A DNA stretch of 64,000 nt from Cordia subcordata (Eukaryota; Streptophyta; Magnoliopsida; Boraginales; Cordiaceae), in contig JAPTOF010000020.1 in NCBI GenBank assembly GCA_028554755.1, positions 3,353,001 through 3,417,000 on the forward strand, given 5' to 3'. The notes below the pieces were generated by a model. That model was not told the DNA's origin. It made no database searches and was given only the letters and a program-made list of their open reading frames with translations. Both the position numbers and the translations under genes were made by a program. Each line of letters opens with the position of its first letter. The first letter of the stretch is position 1. Positions 8,766 through 43,169 of the stretch are shown here, piece after piece.

Positions 8766-11700
8766 ATGTCTTCCACAGGTGGAAAGTTTGAAATCGAGAA
8801 GTTTGACGGGAGAATGAGTTTCAGTCTTTGGAGGATCAGATTCAAGGCATTTATGACAATGCAGGGACTTTGGAAAGTCATTGAAGAAGTGATCCCAGAA
8901 AAGATAGAACCGACAACGAGAGAAGAACTCGGCGAAAGCCTTGAGTGCAATACATATGTCCGTGACAAATGAAGTATTCTTTGGAGATTCTTGAGAAGGC
9001 AGCGATTGAGGCTTGGAATACTTTGGTGGATTTGTATGCATCTAAATCTCCCACAAATCGCCTCTACTTGAAGAAGCGAATGCATCATCTTAGAATGAAA
9101 GAAGGTGCCTCACTAAAACAACACCTTGATTAGTTTACCTCTTGTTTTATAGCTTTGAAGGATGTGGGTGTTAAAATTGATGACGAAGATCAAGCTATGA
9201 TCGTATTATGCTCCTTACCACCTTCATATATGAACTTTGTGGACACTATGTTGTATGCAGGAGGATAAAATTACTTTTGAAGATGTGATTACTTCATTAA
9301 AATCGAAGGATCTTTAAACACATATTAGGGACATAGGGAAGAAGTTCATGGGGAAGGTTTAGTGAGTAGAGGAGATCGGAGAATAGAGGTGGATCTTGGA
9401 TAGAAAGAAAAGCAAGTTAAGGTCAAAATCAAGAGCAAGGAAGCTACGCTGTTTGAGTGTGGCGAAAAGGGTCACATTAAGAAAGAATGTCCAAGGCGAG
9501 AAAAGGAAAGAAAAGGTGGAGAATTCAGCTAATGTGGTGGAGAGTCTTGTGATGATGGAGATAACTCGAGTAGTACGGGAAGTCTTGATCGTGAGTGGAT
9601 CACGATGGCAAAATCAATGGATTCTTGATCGGTGCAACGTTCCATATGTGTCCTAGACGTGGTAGTTCTCTTCTTATTCCAAAAGAGAAGGGAAAGTCTT
9701 TCTAGGCAATGATCTTTCGTTAAAGGTGGAGGAATGGGCATCGTAAATATCAAGATGTTTGATGGTATTACAAGATCTCTCGAGTGTTGGCATGTACCGG
9801 AGCTGAAGAAAAACTTGATTTCTCTTGGGCGTTTGGATTCTCATGGATACAAATTCCGAAGTGAGAATGGTGTCTTAAAGGTGACCAAAGTTGCAATTGT
9901 GCTCTTGAAAGGAACTTGGTAGCGGCCTATATGTCTTTCAAGGTAGTACGATTCACAGTGTTGCACATTACATCCGAGGAGAGTGATAATGACACTCTGT
10001 GATTATGGCACAAAAGGTTGGGCCATATGAGCGAGAGGAATAACCGAAGTGAGCAATAGGGATTTGCTTTGTGGACAAAGAAGCTGAAAGCTTGAATTCT
10101 GCGAGCATTGTGTCTTTGGAAAGCAAACCAGGTGAAGTTCGATGAGGCAGGAGAACACCAAAGGCACATTTGATTATATTCATTCTGATCTTTGGGGTCC
10201 TAATAAAGTTCCTTCCAAGAAAGGTGCCAGGTATTACATCACTTTTATTGATGCATACTCTCGGATGGTGTGGGTATATTTCTTGAAAACTAAAGATGAG
10301 GCGTTTCCAACATTTGTCGAGTGGAAGACGCTAGTTGAAAAGCAGACTGGTAAACAAATTAAGCGTCTTAAGACTGACAATGGGTTGGAATATTGCAACA
10401 AAGAGTTTGATGAGTTCTGCAAGAAACATGGCATTGTGAGACACCGCACATGTGTAGGGACACCACAATAGAATGGAGTTGCAGAACGCATGAATAGAAC
10501 TCTGGTGGAGAAAGCTCGTTGTATGCTCTCCCAATCTGGTTTGAGTCAAGACTTTTGGGTTGAAGTCGTCAATACGGCATGCTACTTGGTGAATAGGTCT
10601 CCATCTAAAGCTATTGAATTGAAAACTCCTTTTGAGTTATGGTCTGGTAAGCCTACTGACTACTCTCGATTGAGGGTGTTCGGTTGCCCTGCATACGCTC
10701 ACGTGAAGGATGGCAAGTTGAAGCCGAGGGCAAAGAAATGCATATTTTTAGGCTATGCGTCCGAGAGGAAAGGTTACAGGTTATGGTGCACAGATCCAAA
10801 GTCTCCAGGTTTCCTCATCGAGGATGTCACGTTCAATGAGTGCGCTTTATTAGACCAAGAAAAGGAGAAAGCGGTAGTGATTTAGACCACGGTGTCAAAG
10901 AAGCGGTGGAGGTATTTTACGATGTACCAAATGTTCCATCTAGCAATAGTAGCGATCAAATTCAGCCGACTCAACCAACCGAGGCACATGATCAAAATAT
11001 GCCGAACAATGTATACTGATGTGCCACTAGGCGAGAAAGGAGACAGATTAGAGAGCCTCAAAGGTATGGATACGCTGATCTTGTTACTTATGCTTTGACT
11101 GTTGCCGAAACAATTGAAGGACATAAGCCGAATTCATACAAAGAGGCCATATCTGGGAAAGATTCTGCTCAGTGGGTGGGTGCCATGAGTGAGGAGATTG
11201 AGTCTCTTCATAAGAATCAAACATGGGAGCTTGTTGAATTGCCTAAGGGACAGCGAGTTGTCGGTTGCAAATGGGTTTACAAGAAAAAGGAAGGTACTCC
11301 AAGGGTTGAAGGTCCTCGATACAAGGCACGGTTGGTGGCAAAAGGCTATACACAAAGGGAGGGTGTTGACTTCAACGAAGTGTTCTCTCCGGTTGTGAAG
11401 CATACTTCCATCGGGTTTTACTTGCCTTGGTTGCTCTTCATGACTTAGAGCTTGAGCGGTAGATGTGAAAGCGGCGTTTTTGCATGGTGATCTTGAAGAG
11501 CAAATTTACATGAGTCAGAAGGGTATGTAGTTCTGGTAAGGAGAACCATGTTTGCAAACTGAAGAAGTCATTGTATGGGTTGAAGCGATCACCTCGGCAA
11601 TGGTATAAGAGATTTGACACATTCATGGTAGGTCTTTGGATACACAAGGAGTGCCTACGACGGTGTGTATATCTCAAGAAGCTTCCAGATGGTTCGTTTG

Positions 11701-12681
11701 TGTACTTGTTGTTGTATGTCGATGATATGCTTATTGCTGCTAAAAGTATGTCTGCAATCGACGAATTAAAGAAGCAGCTAGGTGATGAGTTTGAGATGAA
11801 TTAAAGAAGATTCTTGGCATGGAGATTCACAGATATAGAAACGCTGGGAAGCTATTCTTGTCTCAACAAAGTTATATTGAGAAGGTGCTGGAGCGTTTCG
11901 GGATGCTTAAAGCTAAGCCTGTGAGTGTCTTTGCTTCGCTCACTTCAAATTGTCTGCAGATTTGTCACTTAAAAGCGAGGAGGAGGTGGAGCATATGTCT
12001 CATGTTCCATACTCGAGTCTTTGTTGGTAGCTTGATGTATGCTATGGTGTGCACTCGTCACGATATTTCACATGCAGTTAGTGTTGTGAGCAGGTATATG
12101 GCATCACCTGGGAAAACACACTGGGAAGCGGTGAAATGGATAATGAGATATTTGCGTGGCACTGCGAATATAGGATTGCTATTTAGCAAGATGACTGGAG
12201 ATTGCGCAAGGTTGGTGGGTTATTGTGATTCAGACTTTGCGGGTGACCTTAATAAGAGAAGATCTCTGACGGGCTACATGTTTACTCTCTCTGGATGTGC
12301 TATCAGTTGGAAAGCAACATTACAGTCTACTGTGGCATTGTCGACTACTGAAGCGGAGTATATGGCAATTGCAGAAGCTGTAAAGGAGGCCATATGGTTA
12401 CAAGGCCTGATTCGTGATCTTGGACTGCAGCAAGATACAAGTACAGTCTTTTGTGATAGCCAGAGTGCAATCCATCTGACGAAGAATCAGATGTATCATG
12501 AGAGAACTAAACAGATTGATATCAGATATCATTTTATCAGAGATATTATATCACAAGAAATCATATCGGTGCAGAAGATTTCTACCCATGAGAATCCAGC
12601 AGATATGATGACTAAGGTGGTTCCAGTCAGCAAGTTCAAGCATTGTTTGGACTTGGTTGCTATTTGCGGTGCGGAGCATTG
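8766..12681 (+). pseudogene. Copia gag-pol polyprotein, multiply frameshifted
   Basis: The gag start at 8766 (MSSTGGKFEIEKFDG) fits the Copia gag family. The frame is lost near 8940 and resumes in another frame with a stop at about 9132. The gag zinc knuckle at about 9448-9490 reads FECGEKGHIKKEC, with the first Cys replaced by Leu. The protease motif near 9625 (WILD followed by the usual SGAT) is broken by a net loss of two bases. The integrase has HSDLWGP, TDNG and NGVAERMN (the D-D-E triad) but a stop at 10,469-10,471. The reverse transcriptase has KARLVAKGYTQ near 11,325 and YVDDM near 11,717. RNase H has [11 protein letters not shown] near 12,340, and the last frame (11,819-12,681) is open to the normal end. 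At least two stops and several frameshifts make it non-functional. Confidence 0.9.
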
Positions 12682-12737
12682 AGCCCTTAAGGGCAGTTGG
12701 CTGCAAGGATGATGGTGTATTGATTGGAGCGAATACG

Positions 12738-12753
12738 TGCCAAGGTGGAGATT
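12738..12753 (+). promoter_or_regulatory. polypurine tract
   Basis: The purine-rich sequence ccaaggtggagatt directly precedes the 3' LTR and is the usual plus-strand primer position in plant Copia elements. Confidence 0.85.
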
Positions 12754-13098
12754 TGTTGAATGTGGCCCGTATTATATAATTAATATGTGTCCTTTTTCTT
12801 GTAGTATACTGTTTACTTTTCCTAGTAGTATACTGTTTCCTTATACTTGTAGAATACGGATTATGATACTTATGTACTATAAATAGGGGCTAGACATTAT
12901 ATTAAGGGCCTTAGGTTCATACCTCTTGTGGTATGTGGTGTGAGAGAGAAACTAAAGTGAGAGCCTTGTAGCATTTGTGATCAGTAATAAAATTATTCTC
13001 TGCTGCCCGTGGACGTAGGCTTCAAAGCCGAACCACGTAATTTCTTGTGTCCGTTATTTCTTCTCGTATTCTTCGTGTTTGCATGTTTTTCCCCAACA
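12754..13098 (+). repeat. Copia 3' LTR
   Basis: 345 bp, the same length as the 5' LTR, with about 8 single-base differences. Ends at CCCAACA, followed by the TATAT duplication. Confidence 0.95.
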
Positions 13099-13240: not shown

Positions 13241-14494
13241 TTTTTTGTTGGTGTGTGCTTGACTGTTTTGACTTGGGGTTATGTTATAAATAAGTAAAGC
13301 TGCAGGGACTTATGAGGTAAACAAGGTAACATACAATCAAATGAGCATAAGAATAAGAAAGGAAAAAAAAAAAAGACAGGATGACAAAAAAACCCACGCT
13401 CTTTTCCTTGTTTCTTCTCTGCCGAACCAATCTTCCCTCTTTGAGCTCTTTATTCCTTCTTCTTTTGCAAAGAATTGGAAGAAACTAAGGATAATATCAA
13501 GTTGGGCGATTTAGGTATGATCTTATGAACTTATTTGAGCTATATATATATATATATTGTGTAAATCTGTAGATATGTATGTGTGTGTGTGCTTTGATGT
13601 GGATTTATGATGATTATGTGGAACATGAGTGAATTCTTGGTGTCAAGGGCTTATGCTAGAAAGTATGAGGTGAATTGCATGCCTATATATAGTAAAATTA
13701 AGGAAATTGAGGTAGAAAATGATTGCACCAAGAATAGGGCTCTTGAGTACAACGTGTTTAGGTTTGAAATGGCTTTCTTTTGAGTTGATTATTAAAGTAT
13801 ATGCATGTATGGATCTCTGATTTCATTTGGTAGTTTAGGGAAATTGATGAGTTAGGAATCTTGCTAGAAAGTTTGAAATTTTCATGTTGTTTGGATGGGT
13901 TGTTTGTACAGTGGGATTAAAGGATGTTCATGTAGGATAAATTTAAAGTTTTGCTAGAAAATGCAAGGGAAAGCACTGTTAGACGCCGCAATCTGAGGCA
14001 CATGCGACCCATGCATTAGCCACACAACCACAGGCACATGAGCCTTTACGCCGTCAGACACGTTCATCCAGAAAATGCAACGCACCATCCCCTGTTAGGC
14101 GTCAGTTACCTGATTGCACTAACAGGGGGAAGGGGCCTGATCATTACACACCTGGATGATGTATTCAGTTTTGGAGCACTTTTTTGTTTCATATGTATTT
14201 GTGACACATTATTTTTAGTTGATTGGACTTTCATTTGGTTTTTTTATTTATTTATTTTAGACTACGTTATGTTTTTTATGGTCCACTGAGTACTTAATGT
14301 TTCCAATTGACTATGTTGTGCACGAGTAACCCAAGGTTAAAGTAGACATGACAATGTTAATTAGACAATAACATTACAACGTCACAACAAGTACTCGTTC
14401 ACAACTTTAATTGCATAATAACATTACAACGTCACAACAAATAAACATAAAATGATTACATATAACACTTGCGACAACTGGTAAACATAACGGA
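13241..14494. other. intergenic DNA
   Basis: Mixed composition with a pyrimidine-rich stretch at 13,380-13,460 and a short TA run near 13,545. It may contain the unrecognised left end of the MULE whose transposase starts at 17,006 on the minus strand. No terminus matching the right end was found. No gene is seen. Confidence 0.4.
14089..14128. other. perfect 10-bp inverted repeat (hairpin)
   Basis: CCCCTGTTAG at 14,089-14,098 and CTAACAGGGG at 14,119-14,128 form a perfect 10-bp stem with a 20-nt loop. The surrounding 13,980-14,110 region is GC-richer than its neighbours and includes two copies of ggcacatg. It may be the subterminal region of the MULE to its right, but this is unproven. Confidence 0.5.
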
Positions 14495-17006
14495 TTACGT
14501 ATTTTGGTTGTTGGGGCAAATTGTAACAGTGTGACCTGGTTGACCATATGCTGTACATTTTCGTTGTCCACGGCGATCTGAGTGATCCATCTCGTTTGGG
14601 ATACGCCGGCCTCTGGCTTGTCCTTTTCTTTGTCGAACATGAATTAGGTTCGGATGCAACGTCCATGTAGGCACTAAAGGCCAATAAAATTGGTGTCCAA
14701 GAGGCTCGAATGTCCGCCAATAGGTATCTTTGTACGATTTCATTGTCAGCTGTTGAGGTATCATATTCTCCATATTAAACTCCTTAAACTAAGCAAGAGT
14801 TTGCGCATGCAAGCATGGCAAGTGATATTCAACCCACTTACCGCAAGTACACGTATTTTCTTCCCAAATGACAACCTGGTTTGGCGGATTCTTGTTCCAT
14901 CGCACTGGCAATCGACCGACCTGGTATCTGCCATCCTCTCTGAAACTAAGTACATGATGGCGATGTGACAAGGTCTCCCACTTCTCAAAGAGCTCCCTCA
15001 CACTAGGAGGGAGCTGATGGCCTTCACTTTCCAACTGCATAGCATAGACCAATCGATCATGAAAGTAACCTTTTATCTTCATAAAAGTATTAGTAACAAG
15101 GGTCGTAATGGGTAACCCCCTTGCACCGACGAGGACACTGTTGAAGCATTCGACATTATTTGTGGTCATCACACCCCATCTGATTCCCCCATCAGCGCTC
15201 ATGGTCCATGTATCGGCAGGGATATCGGATAGGAACTTGTGTACTCGTCTGTCAACACCATTCTGACTAGGGTCTACAGCAAAGATCATGTTCATTGCAA
15301 GCACATGTTTGCGTGCTTGACATTCTCGGCCAGCTATCCAACATATGTCTTTAATGAATTGATTCCGCCATCTTTTCATCACATTACTTTTCAGATGTCT
15401 CAAGCAAATGCGATGTTTTATTTCAAGTTGACCGTCACGTATAACTCGTTTGATTGCAAATGCGGTGCCTGCATGCCTATCTAAAATGATACATACTTGG
15501 GGCATCCTAGTGAAAAAGTTCTCACGTAACTGCTGTAAGAATCACGACCAAGTACGAGTTGTCTCTGTATCTACAACTGCAAAAGCTAACGGCAACACTA
15601 GGTGTGTGCCATCTAGCAAAACCATGGGTTTACAATGCCTCCACACCGTGATGCATGGACTGAACGGCCAATAAACCATGTCGAAAATTTTTTCAACCTG
15701 TGTTGAACCTTCGGCGAACCTATATCTCACAACACTACCTGGATTTTTGGCTATCACAGCACAAAGAAACTATGGGAGCACTTGATACGACATGTCCCAA
15801 TTGCCATACACTAGTTCAATTGCTTTATTCTGGCCGTTCCATGCTTTTCTGTAACCGACTTCGTAATCAGCCTTCTTAGCTATGAAATGCCTCACCAAAT
15901 ATCCAACCAAACCTGAAGTCAAATTTCTGTGGCCCGACGCAGTTATTTGCACCATACATACATATCTAACGTCATACTGCGTGATCTCCCACTGTTTGTG
16001 CGTTGCTTTCTTTATGACACGTACATACCATGGGCATGCTACACTTCTATTGTGTGTTTCCCTGCATCGTACCTTCCACGGGGTCTTACTTGACTTGACG
16101 ACCCTATATTCCTTTTGTATTTTTATTGCGTTCTGTTGAATAGCCCTTATCCTATCCACTTTGGATGGGAACACCATTCCTTTGGCCAATTCCATCCTGT
16201 CGGGGTCTCATATTGGACGTTTGATGACCTCGTACCTGCTTGTCGTGTAGAATTTAGTCATAGCAGTATGGAACTCCACTGCTTCCTCCTCATCTACCTC
16301 CGGCTCTGCATCGACATCCAATCCTTCTACCTCGTTCTCAATTTGGTAGTTCAAACTTGCTTCTGAGACTGCATCTTCTTCTTGATCGTTCAATTCACCG
16401 TTCTCATTTTCTTTGTTTGCTTATGACAAAACAGTATCTGCTGCGATATCACATCTCTCCTCTGTGCCATTGCCATGATGAGAGGGTTGTCAGACTTCAA
16501 AAGTGGACTGCAGTTGCGGGAAAAGAGAAAAAGTGGCAAACTCTGACGCTGTTGTTGCAATATTGATATGTTCATCTTCTTCATATGATGGTGCTGCATT
16601 TAGGTTCAGCATGTTAGACTGGTACGGGACATCGGGCATTTGTTGCAGCACATACACGTCATGAGACTGAATGTCCACTATGACGTGCGCCACAACGGTT
16701 CCAATCACGGCGAGCTGTGCCATACATCTCTCGCATATCTTCATCATCAATTATTGCACTTGGATAATAATAAATCTGCTGCAATGTAGCATCCTATCTA
16801 GTGTCACGATAGCATAAGTTAACCCTATCACTGGTCGGACGCCACCTTAGTTTTCTAATTACACGAGAAACAAATTGATTGTAAGTTGTATCGGGATGAA
16901 TTTTGATTTTGCGTGGTATATTTGGACTTCTATAATCAAGACCATAATCGGTCATTATTGTGTGACCGCCATAATATAAAAGAATAGTAACCTCGGTTGA
17001 ATTCAT
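14495..17006 (-). pseudogene. MULE (mudrA-like) transposase, copy 1, decayed
   Basis: Collinear fragments across frames reconstruct a mudrA-type transposase. The N-terminal ubiquitin-fold-like segment (17,006-16,797, LLYYGG...) is followed by an acidic linker (to about 16,210), the MuDR/MULE N-domain (to about 15,770) and the catalytic core. The presumed catalytic residues are the Asp of LLDGTHL (about 15,635), the Asp of LDRHAG (about 15,480) and the Glu of NNVECFN (about 15,150). A CLRHLKSN (C-x2-H) motif is also present. A SWIM finger CTC...CLH lies at about 14,851-14,807, and a C-terminal zinc knuckle at about 14,540 has its second Cys changed to Tyr. Lesions include stops near 16,796 and 14,789, several frameshifts, and an in-frame loss of about 20 residues after LLDGTHL compared with copy 2. 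It cannot encode an active enzyme. Confidence 0.88.
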
Positions 17007-17565
17007 TCTTTTAGGTGCTTTGGTAGAAACTTATACTGACAAATGGAATGAATTTGGTAGAAAGTTTATTTGGTGGAAAGTGGAATGATGGGTAATGGAT
17101 TCAATGAGTCGGTGGAGGAAGGGGTTGGGGTTTATATAGGCAAAAAAACGTATTCCGGGAGTGCGATTTCTAAAATTTCCCATGACATGAAGTGACTAGA
17201 GCATGATAGATGGCAGGGTATATATTTCAGATACTGCAAACGCACTCCCAGAATGCGCTGCTAAGAATAAATTCTCTTCCCCGCAATCAAATCAAATCTA
17301 GCAAATCTGAAATCAAATCAAATCTGCTAGGGTTGCAGGGAAAACCTAGAAAATGGGTTCCAAAAGTGCGGAACGTACTTCCGGAATGCGGGCGCACTCC
17401 AAGAGCACGGGTGCACTTTGGGAGCGAGTTCCGCCTTCTAGGAAGGCGTGAAGCACATTTTCAGAACCAGTTTGGGTTATTTTTGAAAACTTAATACGAA
17501 TTGGGTTAGTTTTGCATGGTATTTTAAAAATTGGTTCAAAAAAATAAAAAAAATCCCCCATACAT
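17007..17565. mobile_element. MULE copy 1, right terminal and subterminal region
   Basis: Upstream of the transposase start lie inverted motifs of one theme: cgtattccgggagtgcg (about 17,149), cgcactcccagaatgcg (about 17,240) and a longer array of ttccggaatgcg/gcgcactcc words at 17,365-17,440. The probable tip is aaaaaaaatccccc near 17,550-17,565, which read outward-in is GGGGGATTTTTTTT, like the A/T-rich tips of MULE copy 2. The arrangement (palindromic subterminal words, then an AT-rich tip) parallels copy 2 with different words. No matching left terminus was found, so the element may be truncated. Confidence 0.5.
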
Positions 17566-22662: not shown

Positions 22663-23650
22663 GGAAATTTTTTTTTTTACCCTTATTTTAAATTTTTATA
22701 GCAAAAATATTTTATTTTTTAAATTGTTTTCAAAAATACTATTTTCGGCTGTTCGCAGATACTGAAATGTAAAAAAAAATTAAAAAGAGTAATTTAAAAA
22801 AAAATTTTAAAAATACAAATGTATTTTTAACAAAAATAATAAGTCCCCTGCCATAGATCGAAAATGGTTAATTTGCATGAATGGGTGCGGTTTGGGGTTG
22901 GGCGTGGGGGTGAAGGTTGGAGGCGTGAGAGGGGGAGAATTTTTATTTTTAACCCTATTTTTTAATTTGCTTTCAAAAGTAACCCAGTTTTGAGGGGGGT
23001 TGCAAAAGTAGACTTTTCGAACTTATGAAGTTCGAAAACGAAGTTACAAAGTTCGACTATGTTAAGGAAAAAAAAAAAGAAATTATAATAAAGTTCCACT
23101 AAGAATTCAAAATTCAGAAGCTTGGAATTGAACTTCTGAAGTTCGACTGCGTGGATCTCGAAAACCGGATAAGCAAGCTGGTCGTTTTCGAAATTTGAAA
23201 GTTCGAATGCGCGCGTCTCTGAGTCACTATCGCTGCACGTAATAGACAGGGCATTAAAGCAGAATCTCGAAACTCGATTTCGAAATTCTGAAATTCGAAA
23301 TACATAAAATCGAACTTCAAAAGTTCGAATACCTATATACTCGAACTTCAGAAGTTCGAAAACTAGCTTTTGTTCCTTGATGTCGAACTTCTAAAGTTCG
23401 ACTCCTCGGAAACCCCATAAGGTAGCTGGCCGTTTTCGAAATTTGAAAGTTCAAATGCGCGCGTCTCGGAGTAACTATCGCTGCACGTAACAGACAGGGC
23501 ATTAAAGCAGAACCTCGAAACTTGATGTCGAATTTCTGATATTCGAAATACATAAAATCGAACTTCAGAAGTTCGATAAGCCTGTATACTCGAACTTCAG
23601 AAGTTCGAAATCTAGCTTTTGTTCCTCGATGTCGAACTTCTGAAGTTCGA
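22663..23650. repeat. PMD-MULE left terminal inverted repeat with palindrome array
   Basis: The outer 360 bp match the right end in inverted orientation. The inner part (23,015-23,650) carries at least six near-identical 19-bp palindromes of the form tcgaacttcagaagttcga (for example 23,310, 23,341, 23,383, 23,558, 23,590 and 23,632), embedded in two tandem units of about 248 bp. Each unit also contains the word cgctgcacgtaa (23,231 and 23,479). Frames through this region only translate the repeat. Confidence 0.85.
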
Positions 23651-23656
23651 CTCCTC

Positions 23657-23667
23657 TAGTATTTAAA
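23657..23667 (+). promoter_or_regulatory. TATA-like box for the PMD gene, inside the terminal repeat
   Basis: The sequence agtatttaaacc follows the last palindrome and precedes a pyrimidine-rich leader (ccctcctcttccatcc). It would start a transcript reading into the PMD gene, probably through a 5' leader intron, since the coding start is about 720 bp further on. Confidence 0.5.
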
Positions 23668-23868
23668 CCCCCCAGCCCAAACCCTCCTCTTCCATCCGAA
23701 ATCTCACCTCTTTTGCTCTCTCCAGTGCTCTCTGATCCCTCTCTCATTTTTCTCCCACCCAACTCAAAAATTTAGTACAAATTTTCCACATCCTAGGATT
23801 TTGCCTAAATCTTGAAAGTTTTCTCTTTTTTTTTTTGGTACCGAATTTATATGTTTTAATGTGTTTGT

Positions 23869-24115
23869 TTGTTTAATTTATATGATGTTAAATTTCGAAA
23901 TTATATGTTAATTACATGTTGCCTACGTTTAATTTGAAAATTAGATTATTGTTTAGTTTAGTGGAATATTAATCATATTGGTTTATTTTATATGTTAATT
24001 ATATGTTGCTTAATACGTTAAATTTTAAAATTAGACTATTGTTTAGCTTAGTGGAATATTAATTTTGTTGGTTTAATTTATATGTTAATTATATGTTGAT
24101 TTATTTTTGGAATAT
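23869..24115. repeat. diverged tandem repeat in the PMD leader
   Basis: About two and a half units of roughly 95 bp with the words ttatatgttaatta, atgttg, aaaattaga, tattgttta and gtggaatattaat. AT-rich and probably part of a leader intron. No coding sequence is seen here. Confidence 0.55.
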
Positions 24116-24390
24116 TAATCATTTTATGATGATGGCATGTATTAATCATTGTGTATATAATTTGTGTGCATATAATCAATATGCATATAATTAGTGTGAA
24201 TTTATAATTTATGATGATGGGATGTATTAATCACTGTAATTTTAATTAGTATGAATGTAGAAAAATTAAAATATTATGAATTTTACAAAGTTAGCAAAAT
24301 TAGTTAAATATTAAAGTTGCAGTTCTAAACTAATTAGTAATAATTAGTACTTTTACATTTCTTTTAATTTACTTAATACTCGTAGGATCT

Positions 24391-26681
24391 ATGGCTCATA
24401 GACCAGCTCCTAGCGATAGTTCAGTGTTATGCTATTACTATGACCACCGGGTGAATTATTTGTCGTCACCACATCAGTTAGAAGAACACAAGATTTATAG
24501 GAGTGATAGAGAGTTATTTCTATGGACGGAGCATCCTGCTGTGCAGACGGCTTTATTGAGAGCCGGATTTTTTGGATGTTATGCGGCGCGCTTCCATCAG
24601 GTTGACAATCCTCTTATTACTGCCTTGATTGAGAGGTGGCGACCAGAGACGCATACATTTCATTTGCCTGTAGGCGAGGCCACGATCACACTCCAGGATG
24701 TCGCTGTATATTGGGGATTACCGATTGTTGGTCAGGTTGTCCCGGTGCTCGACGATACTAGTCGAACTCCGGAAGAGTGGCGGACACATATTCATCAGTA
24801 TATGGGGGTATATGTATCTTTGGACAAAATTAGTGAAAATTCGATTAACATACCCCATTTGAGGGAATTGTACGTAGCCCAAGGCACTCCGGAGAATCCT
24901 GAGGTGGAGGAAGCGAAACGGCGGGCCCGTTTGTGGAATTTTTTGTTATTTGGCACCCATATGTTCACTGATACGACAGGAAATAAATTATCGTTATATT
25001 GGTTAGACTTTTTGATTGACTTTGATCATATCAGTGAATATAATTGGGGGGCAGCATGCCTAGCGCATCTGTATAAATGGCTTTGTAAGGCTTGTTGCCG
25101 TGATTGTAGAGGCATGTGCGGGGCCGTCATGCTCATTCAGGTAGCACACTTAATCATCTCATTGTTGTTAATGATATTTGAAGACGTATTATTACTTATA
25201 ATATAATTATCTTGTACAATACAGTTTTTTGCTTGGGACAGACTCACGGCTTTTAGGCCAACACTGTGTAAGCAGACGGATAGGCACCATCAAAAGAATG
25301 GGCACGCTGCTCACCCTGATTTCCCGTTGCCAGGCCCACCACGCGGCTACATGTTCTTTGCCAGGAAGGATCTGAAGTGGGTTGCGGGCCAGGCTGGTTT
25401 GAACGAGGCGCGGGACATGATTGACCGTTTGCAGCCCGGCGAGGTTTGAAAAAATTTACATCTCACATTTATTACTCTCCCTTGTTAATTTACGTTGTAT
25501 ATTTTATAAACTAATCTGCCGTTATTGTTGTGTTCCCAATTTATTTGGCAGCCATTCGAGCATGCAATGGGTGGTTTGCCACAGTATTGTTTGCAAATGC
25601 GAAAGAGTGGCGAGCATGTGTACCCTTCATCGTTGGTAGGCGGGTTGAGTGGCACCGTCCTGATCGAGTACTTCGGCAGTTCGGCATACGGCAGACGATC
25701 CTCCTTAATCCACCAGCGTGGCAGAAGCACCTGGACGGGAAAGAGAAGATTACAGTCAAACAATATAATTCGACAGTCGACATGTGGGTCAATTGGGAAA
25801 ACACTATTGTGGCGACGGAGTTAGAGGACTTTCCTGATCCTGGGGCTTTGAGGACGTAGATGAGATGGTACCGAGGGATAACCATACTACATGCTGGACA
25901 CCCTTGGACTAGTTATACAGACGACGGTTATGTTGCGTCGGCCCACGATGAGAACAGTCTGGTTAGTGCAATATAAATGTTTTCCCATAAATTCGAATTT
26001 AGTATGCATTGATGCAATACCTATTGACAGTGCCCGTAAATTTTTCTTTAGGAGGTATACGCTCAGCATGTGGTTAACCACAATGGGAGTATTATACGGC
26101 AGTACGAGGCGGGAGACTTACGAGTAGATGCGGCTACTCTTGATTTTATGGTGAGTCATCTGCAGGTCCTGCACATCAGAGGCCAGGCCGTACTTCAGCA
26201 GACCCAGCATGAGCACCTGTTGGACAACACGACAGCCATGTATGACGTCCAACGTCCGCAACCGCCTCCACAAATGTTATATCGGTCGGGACAGCGGGGC
26301 CGTTATCATCATCCTACTCAAGAGCCCAGCACTTCGTACACACCGCCGCAGCCTGGTAGGTTTAGCAAGTTCGAGTATGGCGGTCCGTGGGTCGATCCCA
26401 GCACTTCATACATGCCGCTACATCATGGTAGGTTTAGCCAGTTTGAGTGTGGCGGTCCGTCACATCAGGAGCCCAGCACCTCGAACACGCCACCGCAGGC
26501 GCCATTATCTACCAATGATTATCTGATAGATGATCAGACTGCTGAGCTGGTGCTCGAGGAGGACCATCTACTGCGTCGTACTCGTAGACGCACACAGTCA
26601 CCGCATCCACCACCACGCGTTTTACCCTACCGGACCAGCAGGGGTCGGAAGCCCGATTATTACACGCCTTCTCAGTATTGA
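24391..26681 (+). pseudogene. plant mobile domain (PMD / MAIN-like) gene, 4 exons, two lesions
   Basis: Exon 1 (24,391-25,140) carries the PMD hallmark order: LLRAGFFGCYAAR, ERWRPETHTFHLPVGEATITLQDVAVYWGLP, then the Trp/Asp-rich MFTDTTGNKLSLYWLDFL. Exon 2 (25,225-25,443) has FFAWDRL. Exon 3 (25,552-25,961) has EWRACVPFI and VEWHRPDRVLRQFG. Exon 4 (26,052-26,681) reads into a Pro/Ser/Thr-rich tail with two repeats of (P)STSYxPxxxGRFSxFExGGP and a basic C-terminus. All introns are GT-AG. PMD proteins of the MAIN/MAIL type act in the nucleus in gene expression and transposon silencing, and the domain is also known from transposons. Two lesions: exon 3 starts in the right phase but changes frame between about 25,590 and 25,615, and codon 25,857-25,859 is TAG where the family has an aromatic residue. 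It lies inside a MULE and converges on its transposase. Confidence 0.88.
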
Positions 26682-26917
26682 TGTAGTTGAATAAACATTT
26701 TACATTTCAAACTTATTTTAGTAATTCTATGTAATTGAACTTTCATTTTTCATTATTTTTTTGTACTTATTATCATGTCTCGATATAAATTGTGTTGATG
26801 TTGACAATATTTTGAGATGGAAAGATTTAACAATATCTTTTATTGAAAACATTACATACCATAGTGGAAAAGACCAATTAGCTTCACATGTGACAACTTC
26901 GTGATAACCATTCGAAG

Positions 26918-29550
26918 CTACGTATCTATTCTTAGAGGGCAATTTGGTGCAATATGCCCAGGGTTACGGCAATAACCACACTTTCTTCTGCCTACTTGGT
27001 TGGAATTGTCCATCTCATTTGGTATATGCCGAGCTCTTTCCCGTCCACATCTTCTGTCGCGCACTTGTAAAGCATTCGGGAGTAACGTCCAACTGGGTCC
27101 TGGAGGCCAGTAAAATTCATGTCCAAGGGGTTGAAATGTTATATTATATGTTGCCTTGAATGACTCTACCGTATAATGAAGATCAACCATGGTTGAAGGG
27201 TTTCTACCCCTATAACGGGCAACATATTGGGCATGAGAGCATGGCATATGATAGGCTGTCCACTTGCCACATGTACATGTTCGTCCCACCCAATCTACCT
27301 CTTGTTCGTTGGGAACATCGTTCCATCGTTACGCATTCGATCGACACGTACCACTCATCTAGTCTGAATGCATGCAATCGCATCCAGTGTGAAGACGTCT
27401 CCCACTTTTCATATTTTTCTCTCGCTCGATCTGTCAGAATACGACTATCTCTATGCATGTGCATCACGTTTGCCAACCTATCGTGGAAATATCCCTTTAG
27501 CTTTAAAAAAGTGTTATTTACTAGTGCTGTAATGGACAATCCCCTGGCTCCGACAATCACACCATTGAAGCATTCAACATTATTTGTTGTCAACACTCCC
27601 CATCTATAACCCCTATCGTGGCTCAATGTCCATGAATCTGGACCGAGGTCGGCTAACATCTGGTGCACCTGTGTACCAACGCCAGTGGGTCGTGGGTCGA
27701 TATTACGAATAATGTCCATGGCGGCGATGTGCTTCCGTTTCTGGCTTTTTTTTCCAGCTATCCAACACATGTCTTTTGCGAATTGGTTGTGCCATCTTTT
27801 CATCACATTGCTTTTTAGATGTCTCAAGCAAATGCGATGCTTCACTTGAAGTCGGCCGTCGGATGTTATTGTATTGATGGCTGCCGCGATTCCTGCGTGC
27901 CGATCAAACAGAATGCAAACTGTTGACATGTCGTTTAAAAAACACTGACTTACCTTCTCCAGGAACCACCTCCAACTATTTGTACTTTTGTCATCGCCAA
28001 TGGCAAATGCCAACAGTAATATATGGTCGTTGGCATCTATTGCTAAGGCGACGAGCAGGTGGCCCTTGTACTTCCCATGCAGATGTGTTCCGTCCAACGA
28101 GAGTACAGGTCGACAGTGCCTCCATGCCATGATGCACGGACCAAAAGCCCAAAAAACACAGTGGAAACTTTTTTCTGTTTCAGTTGAACCCTGGACGAAC
28201 TTGTAGCGGACAACGGTTCCAGGATTCTTTGCAATTACGGCGGCAAAAAAGCGCGGCAGCATCTTGTATGACATGTCCCAGTCTCCAAAAACTAGTTGGA
28301 TTGCCTTATTCCTACCATGCCAAGCTTTCCCGTATGTTTTATCAACATTTAAAGTCTTCTTTACGTGGGCTTGGACAAGACGTACCTCGATATCAGGCTT
28401 CTCTACAACAAAATGCCTAACCATGTAGCTGACGGACGGATGTTAGATTTCTATGGTTTGGCCCGCATTTATCTCCCATGCAAATATGCATGCTTTGGTA
28501 CCTCGTAATCTCAAACATCTTGTGTGTGCATTTTTTTACTGTATGAACCTTCCACTTGCATGGTGTCCTAGGATTGCTTGATTCGTAGCAACGTATGTCC
28601 CACAAGACTTATTCGACTTCACCACCCTGTATTCTCGTTTATGTTTGATCACGTTTTGTTGGACAGCCCGTATAAGATCAACCTTTTTCGGGAACACCAT
28701 GCGTTTGGCCAACTCCATCCGTCTCTCGTCCCACATTGGTCTCTCCATTAAAGGCTCATTTGAAGTGATGTAATACTCTGTCCTAGCTGTGTGGAAAGCT
28801 ACTGGTTCTTCCTCCTCTAGATCCGGCTCCAGCTCTTCGCCATTGCTTGGCCCCACATCAACCTCTTCGTTTTCGTAGATTAAACTTTCTACTGACACAA
28901 CATCTTCCTCCTCGTTTAACTGGACGTCCTCATCTACTTCTTTCAGTTTAGATAAAATAGAATCTAATCCCATCTCGAACATATCCCGAATGTCACTAAC
29001 TTGAGAAGGTCCTTCAACTTCAAATGTGGGGCATGACGGTGGAGAAAGGGAAAATATGGCAAACCCTGCTTTTGTGGTTGGAATGTTGACTTCCGCATTG
29101 ACATAATAAGGTGGTTCCATATTCAAATCTGGCAAATCACCAACAACTTCTTGTAGTGTTGCTTCTTCATTTGAATGCTGTGGATTGTACACGACATCAC
29201 TTTGCACGTCTACGACAACGTGCGCACATCTCCTATTCATATTCATGCAAGTCGCTTTCGTACATGTCCTGTACATCTTCGTCATCCTTAATGCCACTGG
29301 GGTAATAATATATTTGTTGTAGGTTTGTGTCCCATTTGGGATCACGATAACACAACTCAACTCTATCGATAGTAGGCCGCAATTGGAGCGTCGTGAATAT
29401 ACGAGATACAAACTGATAGTATGTCGTTCCGGGAAAAATTTTTATTTTATGTGATAAGTTTGGACCTACATAGTCGAGCCCATGATCTGTTTCAATTTTG
29501 TTGCCACCGTAATATAAATATACGTTAACTGCATCAACATTTGCATTCAT
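26918..29550 (-). pseudogene. MULE (mudrA-like) transposase, copy 2, frameshifted
   Basis: From the start at 29,550: a ubiquitin-fold-like N-terminus (VYLYYGGNKIETDHGL), then an acidic Glu/Asp-rich linker, and from about 28,770 the MULE N-domain (MELAKRMVFP...). The core is open in one 404-aa frame (28,424-27,210), with Asp-111 (SLDGTHLHGKYKG), C199-x2-H202 and Asp-174 (FDRHAG), and Glu-284 (NNVECFN), fitting the D-D-E scheme. A SWIM finger (CTCGKW...CSHA) and an intact zinc knuckle (CGYCRNPGHIAPNC) follow in the frame 27,289-26,918. Frame changes occur near 29,240, 28,605, 28,430 and 27,290, so no active protein can be made. The first frame change lies at the same place in MULE copy 1. The reading direction is toward the PMD gene, with about 240 bp between the two 3' ends. 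Confidence 0.92.
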
Positions 29551-29738
29551 CTTTTTGGGTGAAAAAAAAATGTATAACGTGACTTAGATGTGAATGAGTT
29601 GCAGAAGGGAGGGAAGTGGAATGGTTAGTGGTATAGCAGCAAATCCCAATTTTGAAAATGCTACATAATGTGACTTATCGTGTGAACGTGTGTAGGGTTA
29701 GTGATTTTGGAACGAGATGATGAAGGGAGAAGTGGGGT

Positions 29739-29755
29739 GTGCATTATATAGTAAC
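29739..29755 (-). promoter_or_regulatory. TATA-like box for the transposase, inside the right terminal repeat
   Basis: On the minus strand the sequence gttactatataatgcacacc lies about 190 bp upstream of the transposase start at 29,550 and just inside the palindrome array. It mirrors the TATA-like box at the other end. Confidence 0.5.
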
Positions 29756-30688
29756 AAATTCGAACTTAGAAATTCGGATTTTAAACTTCTGAGTTTCGAC
29801 TTATAACCTAACTCGAATTTTAAAAACTCGAAACAACAAAAATCACACGTCAGAAGTTCGAAAGTGCGAAAAATTTGAACTTCAAAAGTTCGAACTTTTC
29901 ACAACTTCGAACTTCAAAAGTTCGAAAAAGGACATCTCTGACAAAAATTTTATTCTCTGCTCTGCTCTGCCCTCGATCACGTCGAAATCTTATAAACTCG
30001 AACTTCTAAAGTTTGAAACACGAAATTATTGTCTCCCTTCTAATATTATTCTCTGCCCTCCGTCACATCGTCGCAACATCGTCACAGAAGGAATTCTGCA
30101 AACCCTAGCACCCTATTTTCGAACTTCATAAGTTCAAAGTTGTTACTGTTGATAATTTCGAACTTTTGAAGTTCGATATTGTAGTTCTGTTATTCGAAAA
30201 TATTTTCGAATTTTCGAAGTCTGATATCGAGTTTTCATCATTCGTGATCGGGCTTCTGAACTTCAAAAAGTCTACTTTTACAACTCCTCTTAAAACTGGA
30301 CTATTTTTTGAATTAAATTAAAAAATAAGGTTAAAAATAAAAATAATCCCGTGAGAGGGTGTAATGCATTAAATTTGTCTGCAGAATTTGTTGGCTGGCT
30401 TGTTTGCATTTAATGCATGTACCTTTGCTTTATTGATTAGTCAACCGCCATGCTTTATTGATTAATCAGCCGCCACTCATTCCCTCCCTTTTTTTTGCCC
30501 CAATTTTGGTAAGTCACCTATCCAATTGTTTACGTTAAAAACACAATCATTTTTTTTAAAATTATTTTCAAATTTTGAGATATGTGGATGATGATAGGTG
30601 ACTTATCAAAAAGAGTATTTTTAAAAATAATTTAAAAAGTAGAGTATTTTTGTTATAAAAATTTAAAATGAAGGTAAAAAAAAATTCC
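29756..30688. repeat. PMD-MULE right terminal inverted repeat with palindrome array
   Basis: From 29,757 to about 30,260 it carries gaacttcaaaagttcgaa-type palindromes (clear ones near 29,874, 29,906, 30,000, 30,118 and 30,158), more decayed than on the left. The outer part (30,262-30,688) matches the left tip in inverted orientation, with an extra segment around 30,360-30,560 that has no left counterpart. Confidence 0.8.
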
Positions 30689-37270: not shown

Positions 37271-38673
37271 TAAATCTCTTCTTGCTGGAACTGGGAATAT
37301 ATATATAATAATGTTGTTAACGGGATAATTATTCTTATGAATCTATGTAAGTAGCCCAACATATGAAAGAAATAAAGCAAGCTTTCCGTAATGCTTTTAC
37401 ATTTATGTCCTCCATCTGAAGTTTCTGGATTTTCTACGCAAAAAAAATCTGAAGTTTCTATATCTTGCTTGTGACATCTTCATCAACTACGTTTGTTTAC
37501 GCATGTCAATGCTAATTTTCAATTATTTCAATGAAATTTTTTTGCACTCCACATTATGTTATCTGTATTTAAACTACTAATTATCTGCATTATGTTTAAG
37601 ATGGAAAAGCTAACATCTTCATAGCAACGCTTAATGCATGCAATATATCTAGGGCTTTAGTTGGAAAAGTAGGTCTTACATCTCCACTTGGAAGCTTCTA
37701 TGCATCTTGAGATTCAAACACTGCTTAATGTGAATTTAATATGCAACACCACTGTTAGGATCTCCAAGGTAACATTTTTGAAGTGTGTGGTGCATTAGTA
37801 TTTTCGTGTGTCCTTTTAGAAGATATGCTGAGGTAATATTCCAAGTTCTTGCTGTAGAACTTGAGCATACACATAAGGGGCTTGGGACTCGATCTCGAAT
37901 GTTTGCTTGACCAGTGGTTGATCTCACGGTGAAAGTGCCTAACATTGCATCTGGAGGAAAATTCACTTGTTAAGTTATAGATATATATATATATATATAT
38001 AACTCAAAAGGGGATCTCTTTTTAGTTATTTGTTTCATGTTCCGTGCTTCTGATTTTATGTCTCAATTATCAAGTAATGCAATTTTTACATGCCCTTGCT
38101 CATCAAGTTATGTTGATGTTCATTGAGGGCTCGTCTCCATTGGCTTTTTTTTTTTTTTTTTTGCATTTTGTTTTAACTTTTGGAAAATTTTGACTTCTAA
38201 AAAACGTTCCATTTGATTTTTTTTTCCTTTTTTAATAAAATAAAACCTTTTTTTTGTAAGGGTTTAGGGCTTTCATTCAGCCCTTTTTGAAGTCAATACA
38301 TATTCTTATTGCAAAATCAAAGTGCTTTTTTTTTTTTCATGAAAAAAGCCAAATTCAAACAAGTCCATAGTTACATGAGGTAACAAATTGTTGATATTTT
38401 TCAACTTTTTGGCTTATTTAGGTGATTTAGCAAAAAAGTCAAAAGAAAAAGGAAGAAGAAAACTTGTTTAATTTTCAGGATTGCTCTTGTTAACAGAATG
38501 GAGAATAAAGGCACGTGGCAACCCATCAAATGAAAAACATAAGGTAAAGTAGTTTTAAAAGTCCTTCTGTTCCCTCACATTTACTAGCTATTCAATTGTT
38601 GTTCTTGAACATTATCATCAGGTAGTGGCCTCATGCTCGGTTTGTTATAAATCCCTGTACTAAGCAGGACTGG

Positions 38674-41277
38674 ATGAGCAAACTACCAGATGAAATTCTA
38701 ATAATGATATTGTCACGTTTGCCCATGAAAGAGGCAATGAGGACAAGACTGCTTTCTCGTAAGTGGAAAAATTTTTGGAAATTTTTCTCCGGGTACATGG
38801 ACTTTGACGCAATGAAAACGATGTCCCTTGTGTATTGGGGAAGTAAAAATGCTAAAATTGACGCATGTAAGTTTAGGGACTGGGTAAATCGAGTCTTGGA
38901 TGCTCATCAAGAAACATCCGTACAAGGACTAAGAGTTCCATATGATATGGGTGTGTATTTTGTTAAGGACATTGATAGATGGATAGACTATGCAATGACG
39001 AAAAAGGTTCAAAGGCTTGAGCTGGATTTGTCTCATCATATTAGTTGTCATAAGCATCCTGAGGATATGTACACATTCCCAGCTTCGTTGTTGGAGTTGC
39101 CTCGCAGTCATTCAAACTTCGACAATCTAACTTCCTTAGGCTTCAAGTCTGTAAACGTGACTGAACAAGTCCTCGCATATTTCTTATCCAATTGCCCGCT
39201 CCTTAAGCATTTGTGTGTGCATGATGTACCAAATATAGGCTGTTTTAGTGTTACTGGTCCAAGACTCAAATTGAAGGAGTTGGAGATCTTGTATTGCCAA
39301 CATTTATACGATCTCAAGATTTCAGCTGCGGAACTTGTCGTTTTCAATTATGCAGGCCGGTGGATTACTACGTCTCTAGAAGATGCTCCTCGCCTCTCTT
39401 CCATTTCCCTTGGGGGTGATTACTGTAGAAGCTTCTTTCCTAGATTTAGATTGCTTCCGTTCGACTTCTCTCAACTTGAGAAATTGGCACTCGACTTGGA
39501 TGACATGGTTTGTTTGTTTTATAATTCTTTACTCTATCAGATCTCTCTCTCTCTATATATTTCTATTGTATTTAAGTTTCACTACAATGTCTAATTTATT
39601 ACATCTAGGTTCTTGAGGAGCCTTGGAGTTTTCTTATGTTGCCAGATTTTAACAATTTTAAGCAATTGGAGATAAGATTCAGAGATTATGATAACCAATG
39701 CATCCTCTTCCTAAATACATTGGTGTGGTCATTTCCTCAGTTATGTAAGTTTGTGCTGAAGGTACGTCAGTGCTTGAAGGAAACTTAAAGTTGTCTTCTA
39801 ATTTATTTTTGAGTTTTTGTATAATTTAATCCCCTTGCTCTTTGTGTGTGATTAAAGTTGTCTTCTAATTTATTTTTGAGTTTTGTATAATTTTATCCCC
39901 TTGCTCTTTGTGTGTGATCTCCCTCATTTTTTCCCATTACTATTTATTCCTGATATTGTTAAACCCACGTTTTGCTCCACCATACTAAGGGCTTGTTCGG
40001 CAAATTTAGCTGTTAGCTGATAGCTGTTTGAGTAGCTGATAGCTGTTTAGGTAGCTGATAGCTGTTGTATTTTAACTGTTAGCGGATAGCTGTTTAACTA
40101 GCTGATTGAACAAAATATGTTCAGTAAAATTAGATGTTAGATTAGCTGATGAATGTTAAATGACGTAAAAGGACATTGATATCCTGTCATTATTATTATT
40201 GTTATTATGATAATTGTAATTACTATTACTATTATAGGAATAAGATAATATATTTCATAATTAGATATTTATTTTCATAATCATATTTTAATATTAAAGT
40301 GTAACTAATTTTTTGATAAAACATTTATATCAATATTAAAAAAATTAATTTTAATAGATTCAAAATTATTTTGTTAAAAAAAATTTACTAATAAAACTTA
40401 TGCTTTTAGTAATGTTGATTATATAGAAATTGAAATTCATTTTTATATTATTTCTTATTTATATTTGTAAAAGAAAAGGTAAAAATATAGAAAGAGATTG
40501 GAAAGAGAATAGAAAAATCAAAAAATACAAAAGGGTAGAATTGCCAAAAAAAAACATGAAAAGCTAAAAGCTACCTGAAACGCTAAATTTTTTAGCTTTT
40601 GAGAAACGCTAGTTGAAACGCTAAAAGCTACCTAAAAAGTTACTTAAAACGCTAGTTTATCGAACAACAATAATTTATCAAAATAGCGTTTTGACTGGTC
40701 AAAACGCTAAACGTTACTTGAAAAACTGTTGCCGAACACTAAGAATATATTTTGTCCTAATTGACATTTTCTATTGTTCTCATGCCTCACTTTTCTCTTT
40801 TCTCTTTTTTTTTTTTCACCCTCCACATTGTGATTGATAGTACAATATCGACGAGAGTTTTCTGAAACATTGGCCACAGGTACATAATATCTTAAACTTT
40901 TGTTGATGTATTGTTCTTATTTGTTGCAAGCAAATGATACATTAATAAATTACAAACTGTTGCAGTCATACGTAGAATCATTAAAGAGGTTAGAGAAGAG
41001 AAATCGAGATTACTGGCTAGAAGTGATAAAACACGAACATCTTAAAGTGGTCGAGTTTTCAGGCTGGGTCGGGCTGAAAACTGATCTTGAGCTTGCCATG
41101 TTTCTGCTTGAAAAAGCAATCTCTCTTGAGAAGATGATCATTGATACTCGTGATCCATTTCGGTTGAAGAACGAGTTGGATTTGGGTTCGACCGAGAAGA
41201 GGAAAGCTGCCAGAGAATGTGCTGCCAACAAGCTAGCCCCAAAATTACCTCAAGGAGTTAGTTTAGATATAATTTAA
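38674..41277 (+). CDS. F-box protein with leucine-rich and FBD-like C-terminal region
   Basis: Four exons join in phase: 38,674-39,507, 39,609-39,761, 40,841-40,879 and 40,966-41,277, giving 445 aa with GT-AG introns. Residues 1-40 form an F-box (LPDEILIMILSRLPMKEAMRTRLLSRKW), which in this family binds SKP1 in an SCF ubiquitin ligase. Residues about 130-280 have leucine-rich repeat-like segments (NLTSLGFKSVNVTEQVLAYFL, LKHLCVHDV, LKELEILYC). The end (EHLKVVEFSGWVGLKTDLEL, LLEKAISLEKMIID) is FBD-like and probably helps choose the substrate, which is unknown. The length fits the F-box/LRR/FBD class. Intron 2 contains a MITE (39,988-40,740) and a 66-bp tandem duplication. A ttataaat word lies only 28 bp before the ATG. 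The copy at 47,027 is broken, so this is the surviving member. Confidence 0.88.
39785..39917 (+). repeat. 66-bp tandem duplication in F-box intron 2
   Basis: Two adjacent copies of a segment with cttctaatttatttttgagt and ccccttgctctttgtgtgtg. The homologous intron of copy 2 (about 49,140-49,205) has only one, so the tandem arose after the segmental duplication. Confidence 0.85.
39988..40740. mobile_element. hAT-type MITE in intron 2 of the F-box gene
   Basis: The left end is gggcttgttcggcaaa, and the right end read inward is agtgttcggcaac. The flanks atactaag (39,982) and acactaag (40,736) match at 7 of 8 positions, an 8-bp hAT-type duplication, although the exact tip cannot be fixed to the base. 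The homologous intron of the duplicated copy (about 49,555-49,575) lacks the insert and reads straight through. An imperfect tandem gtagctgatagctgttt array lies near the left end. A truncated relative lies at 5960-6475. Confidence 0.75.
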
Positions 41278-41280
41278 TAT

Positions 41281-41735
41281 TTGAATTCTATATACACGCT
41301 CTTTGTGATTAAATTATGCTTGAACCATGCATAAATTCGCTCAAGTTAAAATATTATCAGTCTTTCAATCTTCATCTGTTACCTTTTGTTCTCTTTTTTC
41401 TCTCTTTCTCTTTTCACATCGCACTTTGCTTGTGATATTCATTGTCATGTGCTCGTCTTTTTGTCCAAATTTTAATGTCAAATCAACAAAAGGACTAACC
41501 ATTAGAAAAAGTAAGGGACTAAATGGTGTTACTTATAAAAATGGGGACTAAATTGACAAACATGCAGAAAAGCGGAAACTACCGCGGTGGGTAACCCAAA
41601 GAAAAGGCAATTAAAGAGTTGTACTATAAAATCAGGGTTAAGGCCATGAAATCATTGCACCATCGCGCAGATAGCATAACAACTTAAATATACAAGAAGG
41701 GTAGTAGTATACTTGAGAAAAGTAAAACCATGGCC
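41281..41735. other. spacer between F-box gene and GASA remnant
   Basis: 3' flank of the F-box gene, shared with copy 2 (49,953-50,500). No separate gene is seen. Confidence 0.5.
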
Positions 41736-41740
41736 TAGAT

Positions 41741-41980
41741 TCATTCTAGAAAAACATTTTGCAGCAGATTGAGGTTTTGATTTAGGCTTAAGAGTAGTAG
41801 TATACTTGGTTTGGTTGCATGAGTGGTCTTGTCGGTGTAGCATTTCCCGCAAAGTTCTCTGTTGCCTGAAGTGCCCGAAGGCACACTTTTGCATCTGGCG
41901 CAGCTTGTCCCGCATGCCCTCGCGTACAAATTTGGCTTGCGAATGTAAGCTGCATCTCACCTCGCATAATGCTCCACAAT
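41741..41980 (-). pseudogene. GASA/Snakin last-exon pseudogene
   Basis: Homologous to exon 4 of the GASA gene at 50,559. It begins at the same splice acceptor (ctgcag at 41,981-41,986) with DCGALCEVRCSLHS. A single-base indel near 41,930 then shifts the frame, after which YARACGTSCARCKSVPSGTSGNRELCGKCYTD can be read in another frame. Three of the twelve Cys are replaced or lost (the fourth by Tyr, two others by Ser), including the final KCP. The three upstream exons are absent, because similarity to copy 2 stops at the acceptor. It cannot make a folded GASA peptide. Confidence 0.85.
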
Positions 41981-43155: not shown

Positions 43156-43169
43156 AAAAGAAAAAGAGG

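What the first reader, a model, noticed from the sequence alone, without database searches (positions are those of the whole stretch)
22663..30688. A MuDR-like transposon that pairs a plant-mobile-domain gene with a mudrA-like transposase
Seen: matching inverted tips and subterminal blocks at both ends, a PMD gene reading rightward from the left end, a transposase reading leftward from the right end, and 3' ends about 240 bp apart. This is the layout of maize MuDR (mudrA and mudrB convergent from long terminal repeats), with a PMD gene in the mudrB place. Known: PMD proteins of the MAIN/MAIL type act in gene expression and transposon silencing, and the domain also occurs in transposons. Inference: the PMD gene was cargo or an accessory gene that helped this lineage transpose or evade silencing.
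Basis: partly seen in the sequence, partly recalled or inferred. Interest (0 to 1): 0.85.

Follow-up and report, generated by a model that had tools for sequence, protein, structure and literature searches.

The report
Nested plant Mutator-like transposon carrying PMD gene
This is one decayed copy of a repeated plant jumping gene of the Mutator type that carries, beside its transposase, a second gene related to plant silencing factors; the two genes have been inherited and constrained together, but that kind of pairing is already described.

Summary
The gene pair is real, but the boundaries are wrong: the reported span is two nested Mutator-like elements (MULEs). The inner one, 22934-30349, carries both genes (a four-exon plant-mobile-domain (PMD) gene reading right, a MULE transposase reading left, stops 236 bp apart) between perfect 10-bp target-site duplications. 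Both genes are broken here. Of 21 genomic copies compared, 12 cover PMD >=97% and transposase >=99%, and 14 of 17 two-ended copies have perfect 8-10 bp duplications. Of 102 scored transposase places, 73 have a scored PMD place within 8 kb, 72 of them convergent. PMD and transposase trees agree across subfamilies; corrected dN/dS is about 0.4 for PMD in five of six divergent loci (near 1 within the family). So PMD looks like a retained, constrained part of the element, not cargo. Its function is unknown; interference with MAIN/MAIL1-type silencing is my likeliest guess. Antisense PMD genes are already tabulated for several plant MULE groups (PMC6446971). The least familiar feature is a set of GAACTTC-N-GAAGTTC palindromes confined to both subterminal regions, comparable in layout to VANC target arrays.

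The parts
22665..22933 (.). left part of the outer gene-less MULE-like element (tip GGAAATTTTT...); its last 10 bp are the inner element's duplication
   Evidence: 22670-22745 pairs with 30609-30684, 88%; tip pattern 2 hits, shuffle mean 0.00; nesting from the inner duplication
22924..22933 (.). 10-bp target-site duplication of the inner element, left copy (CGTGAGAGGG)
22934..23042 (+). left terminal inverted repeat of the inner MULE (GGAGAATTTTTATTTTTAACC...)
   Evidence: 80% over 110 nt with 30241-30350; left end recurs in the genome
23019..23648 (.). left subterminal array, 8 GAACTTC-W-GAAGTTC palindromes (<=1 mismatch)
   Evidence: 12 in the window, shuffle mean 0.00; in 12 copies examined only near the two ends
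24391..26681 (+). PMD gene, exons 24391-25140, 25225-25443, 25552-25961, 26052-26681; one single-base deletion and one in-frame stop in this copy
   Evidence: Pfam; splice sites kept in most of 14 aligned copies; the column majority of 14 copies reads open to the last codon
26918..29550 (-). mudrA-like MULE transposase gene, broken by frame changes and a stop in this copy
   Evidence: Pfam; the column majority of 13 aligned copies reads open to the last codon
29877..30174 (.). right subterminal array, 4 palindromes
30241..30349 (-). right terminal inverted repeat of the inner MULE
30350..30359 (.). 10-bp target-site duplication of the inner element, right copy
30360..30687 (.). right part of the outer gene-less MULE-like element

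Best explanation
Shown: 22934-30349 is a decayed copy of a repeated plant MULE with inverted ends, a 10-bp target-site duplication, a MULE transposase and a convergent PMD gene, inserted in a smaller gene-less MULE-like element. Shown for the loci compared: the two genes have the same branching order across subfamilies and both carry a signal of constraint between subfamilies. Inferred from that: the lineage was once autonomous and PMD belongs to its working gene set. Inferred: the PMD protein acts for the element by mimicking host MAIN/MAIL1-type PMD proteins and disturbing the silencing step those proteins serve, so that the transposase can be expressed. Inferred with less weight: the subterminal palindromes are where the transposase, or the PMD protein, binds.
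For: Ends and duplications. Repeat family: 41 listed matches to the left end and 150 listed to PMD exon 1 (loose first-look candidates 687, 1655 and, for the transposase, 2386; only 40, 150 and 102 scored). Of 21 copies, 12 cover PMD >=97% and transposase >=99%, 14 cover both >=60%. 73 of 102 scored transposase places have a scored PMD place within 8 kb, 72 convergent; about 0.5 pairs expected at random. Trees of the two genes give the same subfamily groups, distance correlation 0.98, 9 rows. Transition-corrected dN/dS between subfamilies: PMD 0.35-0.46 in five loci, transposase 0.42-0.56 in four; own-family copies 0.58-1.23 and 0.97-2.10. Host MAIN/MAIL1 act in TE silencing, and counter-silencing by TE-borne PMD is proposed in PMC5418596 and PMC8616336 (passages).
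Against: No expression, methylation or binding data. Among the aligned copies (14 PMD, 13 transposase) every one has at least one in-frame stop, so no working copy was seen. In L032 dN/dS does not differ clearly from 1 (PMD 0.76, 0.53-1.14; transposase 0.97). The divergent loci are all compared with one family majority and share branches, so they are not independent. Without the transition correction the same-family controls fall to 0.40-0.73 for PMD, close to the between-family 0.24-0.45. Within the family, variants look neutral (PMD transitions 1.04 for singletons, 1.07 for 2-3 carriers; transposase 0.93 and 1.10). The PMD tree leaves this gene unplaced (branch 3.6, no supported set), so kinship to MAIN/MAIL1 in particular is unproven. 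Seven of 21 copies lack most of at least one gene in the fetched stretch.
Confidence: 0.6

Rival explanations
1. The PMD protein is a direct helper of transposition (for example of integration), in the role assigned to maize mudrB, and has nothing to do with silencing.
For: Same convergent position as mudrB (layout recalled); PMD about as constrained as the transposase; mudrB is said to be apparently required for integration (PMC6446971 passage).
Against: No link between PMD and mudrB was tested; host PMD proteins are silencing and expression factors.
Confidence: 0.25
2. The PMD gene is a passenger captured from the host and merely carried (Pack-MULE cargo).
For: MULEs capture gene pieces, and capture of genic PMD by MULEs is proposed in PMC5418596 (passage). 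Within-family changes are neutral.
Against: PMD is covered >=97% in 14 of 21 copies; 72 of 73 scored pairs convergent; constraint between subfamilies and same branching order as the transposase.
Confidence: 0.05
3. One single MULE spans 22663-30688 with long composite ends.
For: Both tip pairs are inverted repeats and the two left tips align over about 36 bp.
Against: Perfect 10-bp duplication at the inner ends; other copies end at the inner ends with their own duplications. Of 34 fetched loci only L001, the window's own place, holds the outer left half; the other matches are 81 bp or less.
Confidence: 0.03
4. The PMD is a sequence-specific anti-silencing factor that binds the subterminal palindromes of its own family, a PMD counterpart of VANC.
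For: In 12 copies examined the palindromes lie only within 1.1 kb of either end, none in the middle or in the flanks held; AAGTTCGA is the top or joint top 8-mer (of those with at least 3 G or C) at the ends of all five two-gene divergent loci; VANC targets are short motifs in non-coding parts of their TE, partly terminal (PMC5735166 passages).
Against: Such arrays may simply be transposase sites. Pfam found only the PMD in the PMD gene's pieces, no DNA-binding domain; the exon-1 model has no PDB match at E <= 0.001. With 2 mismatches allowed L030 has only 2 palindromes, both on the left, and L033 none.
Confidence: 0.15

Closest known systems
Plant MULE groups 47-50 with PMD (MULE-Monocots, MDR, MUDRAVI2, MUDR; PMC6446971, Table 1 seen as a passage)
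   Same: Flowering-plant MULEs, 9-10 bp duplications where indicated, SWIM or CCHC finger, PMD in most members, sometimes to mostly antisense
   Different: Which group this transposase belongs to was not tested; palindrome arrays and nesting are not mentioned in the passages seen
Maize MuDR (mudrA/mudrB; layout recalled)
   Same: Convergent two-gene layout, mudrA-like transposase, inverted ends, duplications of about 9 bp
   Different: PMD gene in the place of mudrB; here the ends match at 80% over about 110 bp
PMD-MULE fusion genes of grasses and Amborella (PMC5418596, passages)
   Same: PMD and MULE transposase in one element
   Different: There fused in one protein; here separate and convergent. 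Gene models that join the two on one strand also turned up in Senna (P0091: PF10551 and PF10536) and Actinidia (P0030: SWIM and PMD, with transposase-like sequence by eye)
VANDAL/Hiun with VANC (PMC5735166 passages; PMC10398659 abstract)
   Same: MULE with an accessory gene and motif arrays in non-coding parts
   Different: VANC is another protein (no comparison run); VANDALs lack terminal repeats or have short degenerate ones (PMC6446971 passage); no anti-silencing shown here

Membership tests
Mutator-like element (MULE) | MULE transposase domain | tested here: met
   PF10551 E 7.8e-18, 65.2 bits, cut-off 27.6
Mutator-like element (MULE) | 8-11 bp target-site duplication | tested here: met
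   10 bp here; of 17 two-ended copies 14 perfect at 8-10 bp (shifts of a few bases allowed), two with one mismatch over 8, one none
Mutator-like element (MULE) | terminal inverted repeats, commonly long | tested here: met
   110 nt at 80%
Plant MULEs with antisense PMD (PMC6446971 groups 47-50) | PMD gene antisense to the transposase | tested here: met
Plant MULEs with antisense PMD (PMC6446971 groups 47-50) | transposase falls in one of these clades | not tested
   reference sequences of that study not at hand
Maize MuDR | mudrB as second gene | tested here: inconclusive
   the second gene is PMD by Pfam; mudrB itself was not compared
PMD-transposase fusion MULE (PMC5418596) | one fused protein | tested here: not met
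   opposite strands, stops 236 bp apart
PMD-C (MAIN/MAIL) clade | branching inside PMD-C | tested here: inconclusive
   47-row tree leaves it unplaced, branch 3.6; no Arabidopsis reference rows in it
VANDAL with VANC | VANC gene and anti-silencing | not tested
   no VANC comparison run and no methylation data

The most novel reading that the evidence does not exclude
A PMD protein borne by the transposon is a self-directed anti-silencing factor: it recognises, alone or with the transposase, the palindrome arrays at both ends of its own family and keeps host MAIN/MAIL1-type silencing off those copies. It would be an independent counterpart of VANC and would explain why PMD is constrained about as much as the transposase.
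Probability: 0.15. Interest if true: 0.75.

Novelty: new member of a known kind. Interest (0 to 1): 0.4.

Why it matters
PMD proteins connect plant silencing factors (MAIN/MAIL1) with transposons, but what the transposon versions do is unknown. This genome offers a natural experiment: many copies, several subfamilies, PMD and transposase constrained to a similar degree, and a clear candidate target sequence at the ends. That makes the proposed counter-silencing role directly testable. The layout itself is already described, so the find is mainly a test system and a correction of the element's limits.

Tried and rejected
Rejected: one element 22663-30688; PMD as chance neighbour or host gene at this locus; PMD as passenger. 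Led nowhere: viral-contig scans with transposase and PMD, no relatives; PMD tree, unplaced; PDB by sequence, best E 0.73, and by fold for a model of exon 1 (mean pLDDT 81), best E 0.76. The transposase protein search gave 6 hits, best 33% identity over 59% in Dendrobium. A stretch of 592 bp in L017 has similar tips, but against the joined outer halves only 376 positions agree over about 600, so it is at best a distant relative. The first dN/dS estimate (no transition correction) gave PMD 0.24-0.45 and transposase 0.28-0.47, with same-family controls 0.40-0.73 and 0.60-1.00; because those controls should be near 1, I recomputed it with transitions and transversions apart and use that. An uninterrupted outer copy and the second MULE's family could not be sought in the genome because the tool did not complete.
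Full report
What is there. The two genes are as described. PMD reads right in four exons (24391-25140, 25225-25443, 25552-25961, 26052-26681) and the transposase reads left (29550 to 26918); 236 bp lie between the stops. Pfam gives PMD at E 1.5e-39 for exon 1, MULE transposase at 7.8e-18, SWIM at 2.6e-4, and a CCHC knuckle under its cut-off. Splice sites are kept in most of 14 aligned genomic copies, not in all. In this copy both genes are broken: PMD has one single-base deletion and one in-frame stop, neither seen in the other 13 aligned copies; the transposase has frame changes and a stop.

Two elements, not one. The inverted repeats fall into two pairs: outer 22670-22745/30609-30684 (88%) and inner 22933-23042/30241-30350 (80%). 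A perfect 10-bp direct repeat, CGTGAGAGGG, abuts the inner pair at 22924-22933 and 30350-30359 and occurs nowhere else in the window on either strand. With shifts of 3 bp allowed, 11 of 20,000 random position pairs gave 10 bp or more. Hence the gene-bearing MULE is 22934-30349 (7416 bp). It sits in a gene-less MULE-like element with similar tips, about 597 bp without the insert. At the outer ends no perfect duplication of 4 bp or more was found, and an uninterrupted outer copy could not be sought because the genome search did not complete. The outer element is therefore less certain than the inner one.

Other copies. Its left end gave 41 listed matches; 687 loose first-look candidates, 40 scored. 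I fetched 20 of those places and compared them with the window copy. Of 21, 17 showed both ends in the stretch held; with shifts of a few bases allowed, 14 have perfect duplications of 8-10 bp (12 of 9-10 bp), two have one mismatch over 8 bp, one has none. By tblastn coverage, 12 of 21 have PMD >=97% and transposase >=99%, 14 of 21 have both >=60%, and seven lack most of at least one gene in the stretch held. Coverage is not integrity: each of the 14 aligned PMD and 13 aligned transposase copies has at least one in-frame stop.

Are the genes together? Of 102 scored transposase places, 73 have a scored PMD place within 8 kb and 72 of these are convergent; about 0.5 pairs are expected at random. 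The one same-strand case pairs the transposase of L016, whose own PMD is mostly gone, with the PMD of the next element.

Divergent subfamilies. Six loci were picked for low identity, not sampled. Five carry both genes convergently; L033 shows only PMD exon 1. Nucleotide trees of PMD and transposase for nine rows (five divergent loci, four of the window family) give the same groups: L030+L034, L029+L031 (weaker for the transposase, 87/90), and L032 next to the window family; distance correlation 0.98. With transitions counted apart, and codons with one difference only, PMD dN/dS against the window family's column majority is 0.35-0.46 in L029, L030, L031, L033 (exon 1) and L034, and 0.76 (0.53-1.14) in L032; for the transposase 0.42-0.56 in four loci and 0.97 in L032. 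Copies of the same family give 0.58-1.23 for PMD (5 copies) and 0.97-2.10 for the transposase (5 copies). So both genes show constraint between the deeper subfamilies and none clear in the shallow ones. The loci share the same reference and some branches, so they are not independent tests. The uncorrected first run gave lower numbers, with controls also below 1. Variants within the family look neutral for both genes, and the class carried by four or more copies is too small to use (10 and 9 variants).

Subterminal arrays. GAACTTC-W-GAAGTTC palindromes (<=1 mismatch) occur 12 times in the window, all in the element's ends, against a shuffle mean of 0.00. In 12 of the 17 two-ended copies, those I gave to the script, they lie only within 1.1 kb of the ends: 4-8 on the left, 1-5 on the right, none in the middle or in the flanks held. 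With two mismatches allowed the divergent loci have 9 (L029), 2 (L030), 7 (L031), 14 (L032), 0 (L033) and 5 (L034). The AAGTTCGA core is the top or joint top 8-mer, among words with at least 3 G or C, at the ends of the five two-gene divergent loci, weakest in L030. The right end of the second MULE in the window has a different commonest word, CGCACTCC, with only 3 copies.

A second MULE with a PMD trace. At 14513-17003, minus strand, lies a transposase 47-62% identical to the first. Convergent to it, a stretch at about 14046-14153 matches the last part of the PMD protein (score 81; best separate place apart from the PMD gene itself 50; 0 of 2000 shuffles reach it). So a distant relative probably had the same arrangement. 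This rests on one short remnant.

Mechanism. Shown: a two-gene MULE whose genes branch together and are constrained between subfamilies. Inferred: PMD serves the element. Host MAIN and MAIL1 act in TE silencing, and counter-silencing by TE-borne PMD has been proposed (passages of PMC5418596 and PMC8616336). A transposition helper in the place of mudrB is the main rival. The VANC-like reading rests on layout alone (passages of PMC5735166; abstract of PMC10398659). The PMD exon-1 protein has no significant solved relative by sequence or by fold of its model.

Known or new. Table 1 of PMC6446971 (seen as a passage) lists PMD, often antisense, for several plant MULE groups. PMC5418596 (passages) describes PMD-MULE fusions in grasses and Amborella. 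MULEs inserted in other transposons are described too (PMC3903597, passages). The element is a new member of a known kind. I did not search the literature for palindrome arrays in PMD-bearing MULEs.

Noticed in passing
13960-17560: Second, more distant MULE: transposase pieces on the minus strand (17003 to 14513), a right end near 17558 that looks like the first family's tip, and a short convergent remnant matching the PMD C-terminus. No left end was found by eye.
   Followed up: partly
7552-13098: Perhaps a copia-type LTR retrotransposon: 346-bp direct repeats (7552-7897 and 12753-13098, 97.7% identical) around a frame at 11795-12682 that reads like copia polyprotein (by eye, no search).
   Followed up: no
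37995-50752: Several direct repeats 74-82% alike around an F-box-like frame at 38626-39594 (by eye, no search), suggesting a tandem gene cluster.
   Followed up: no
23130-23656: A block of about 275 bp is duplicated in tandem (89%) and doubles part of the left palindrome array; many of the fetched copies match the same way.
   Followed up: partly
L017:8992-9583: A 592-bp stretch with tips like the outer element's, next to a copy of the PMD-bearing MULE; the interior is at best distantly alike.
   Followed up: partly
P0030, P0091, P0119: Gene models from Actinidia and Senna join transposase sequence and PMD on one strand; one from Paulownia begins with a scrap that reads like transposase (by eye). 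Fusion models thus occur in eudicots too.
   Followed up: partly
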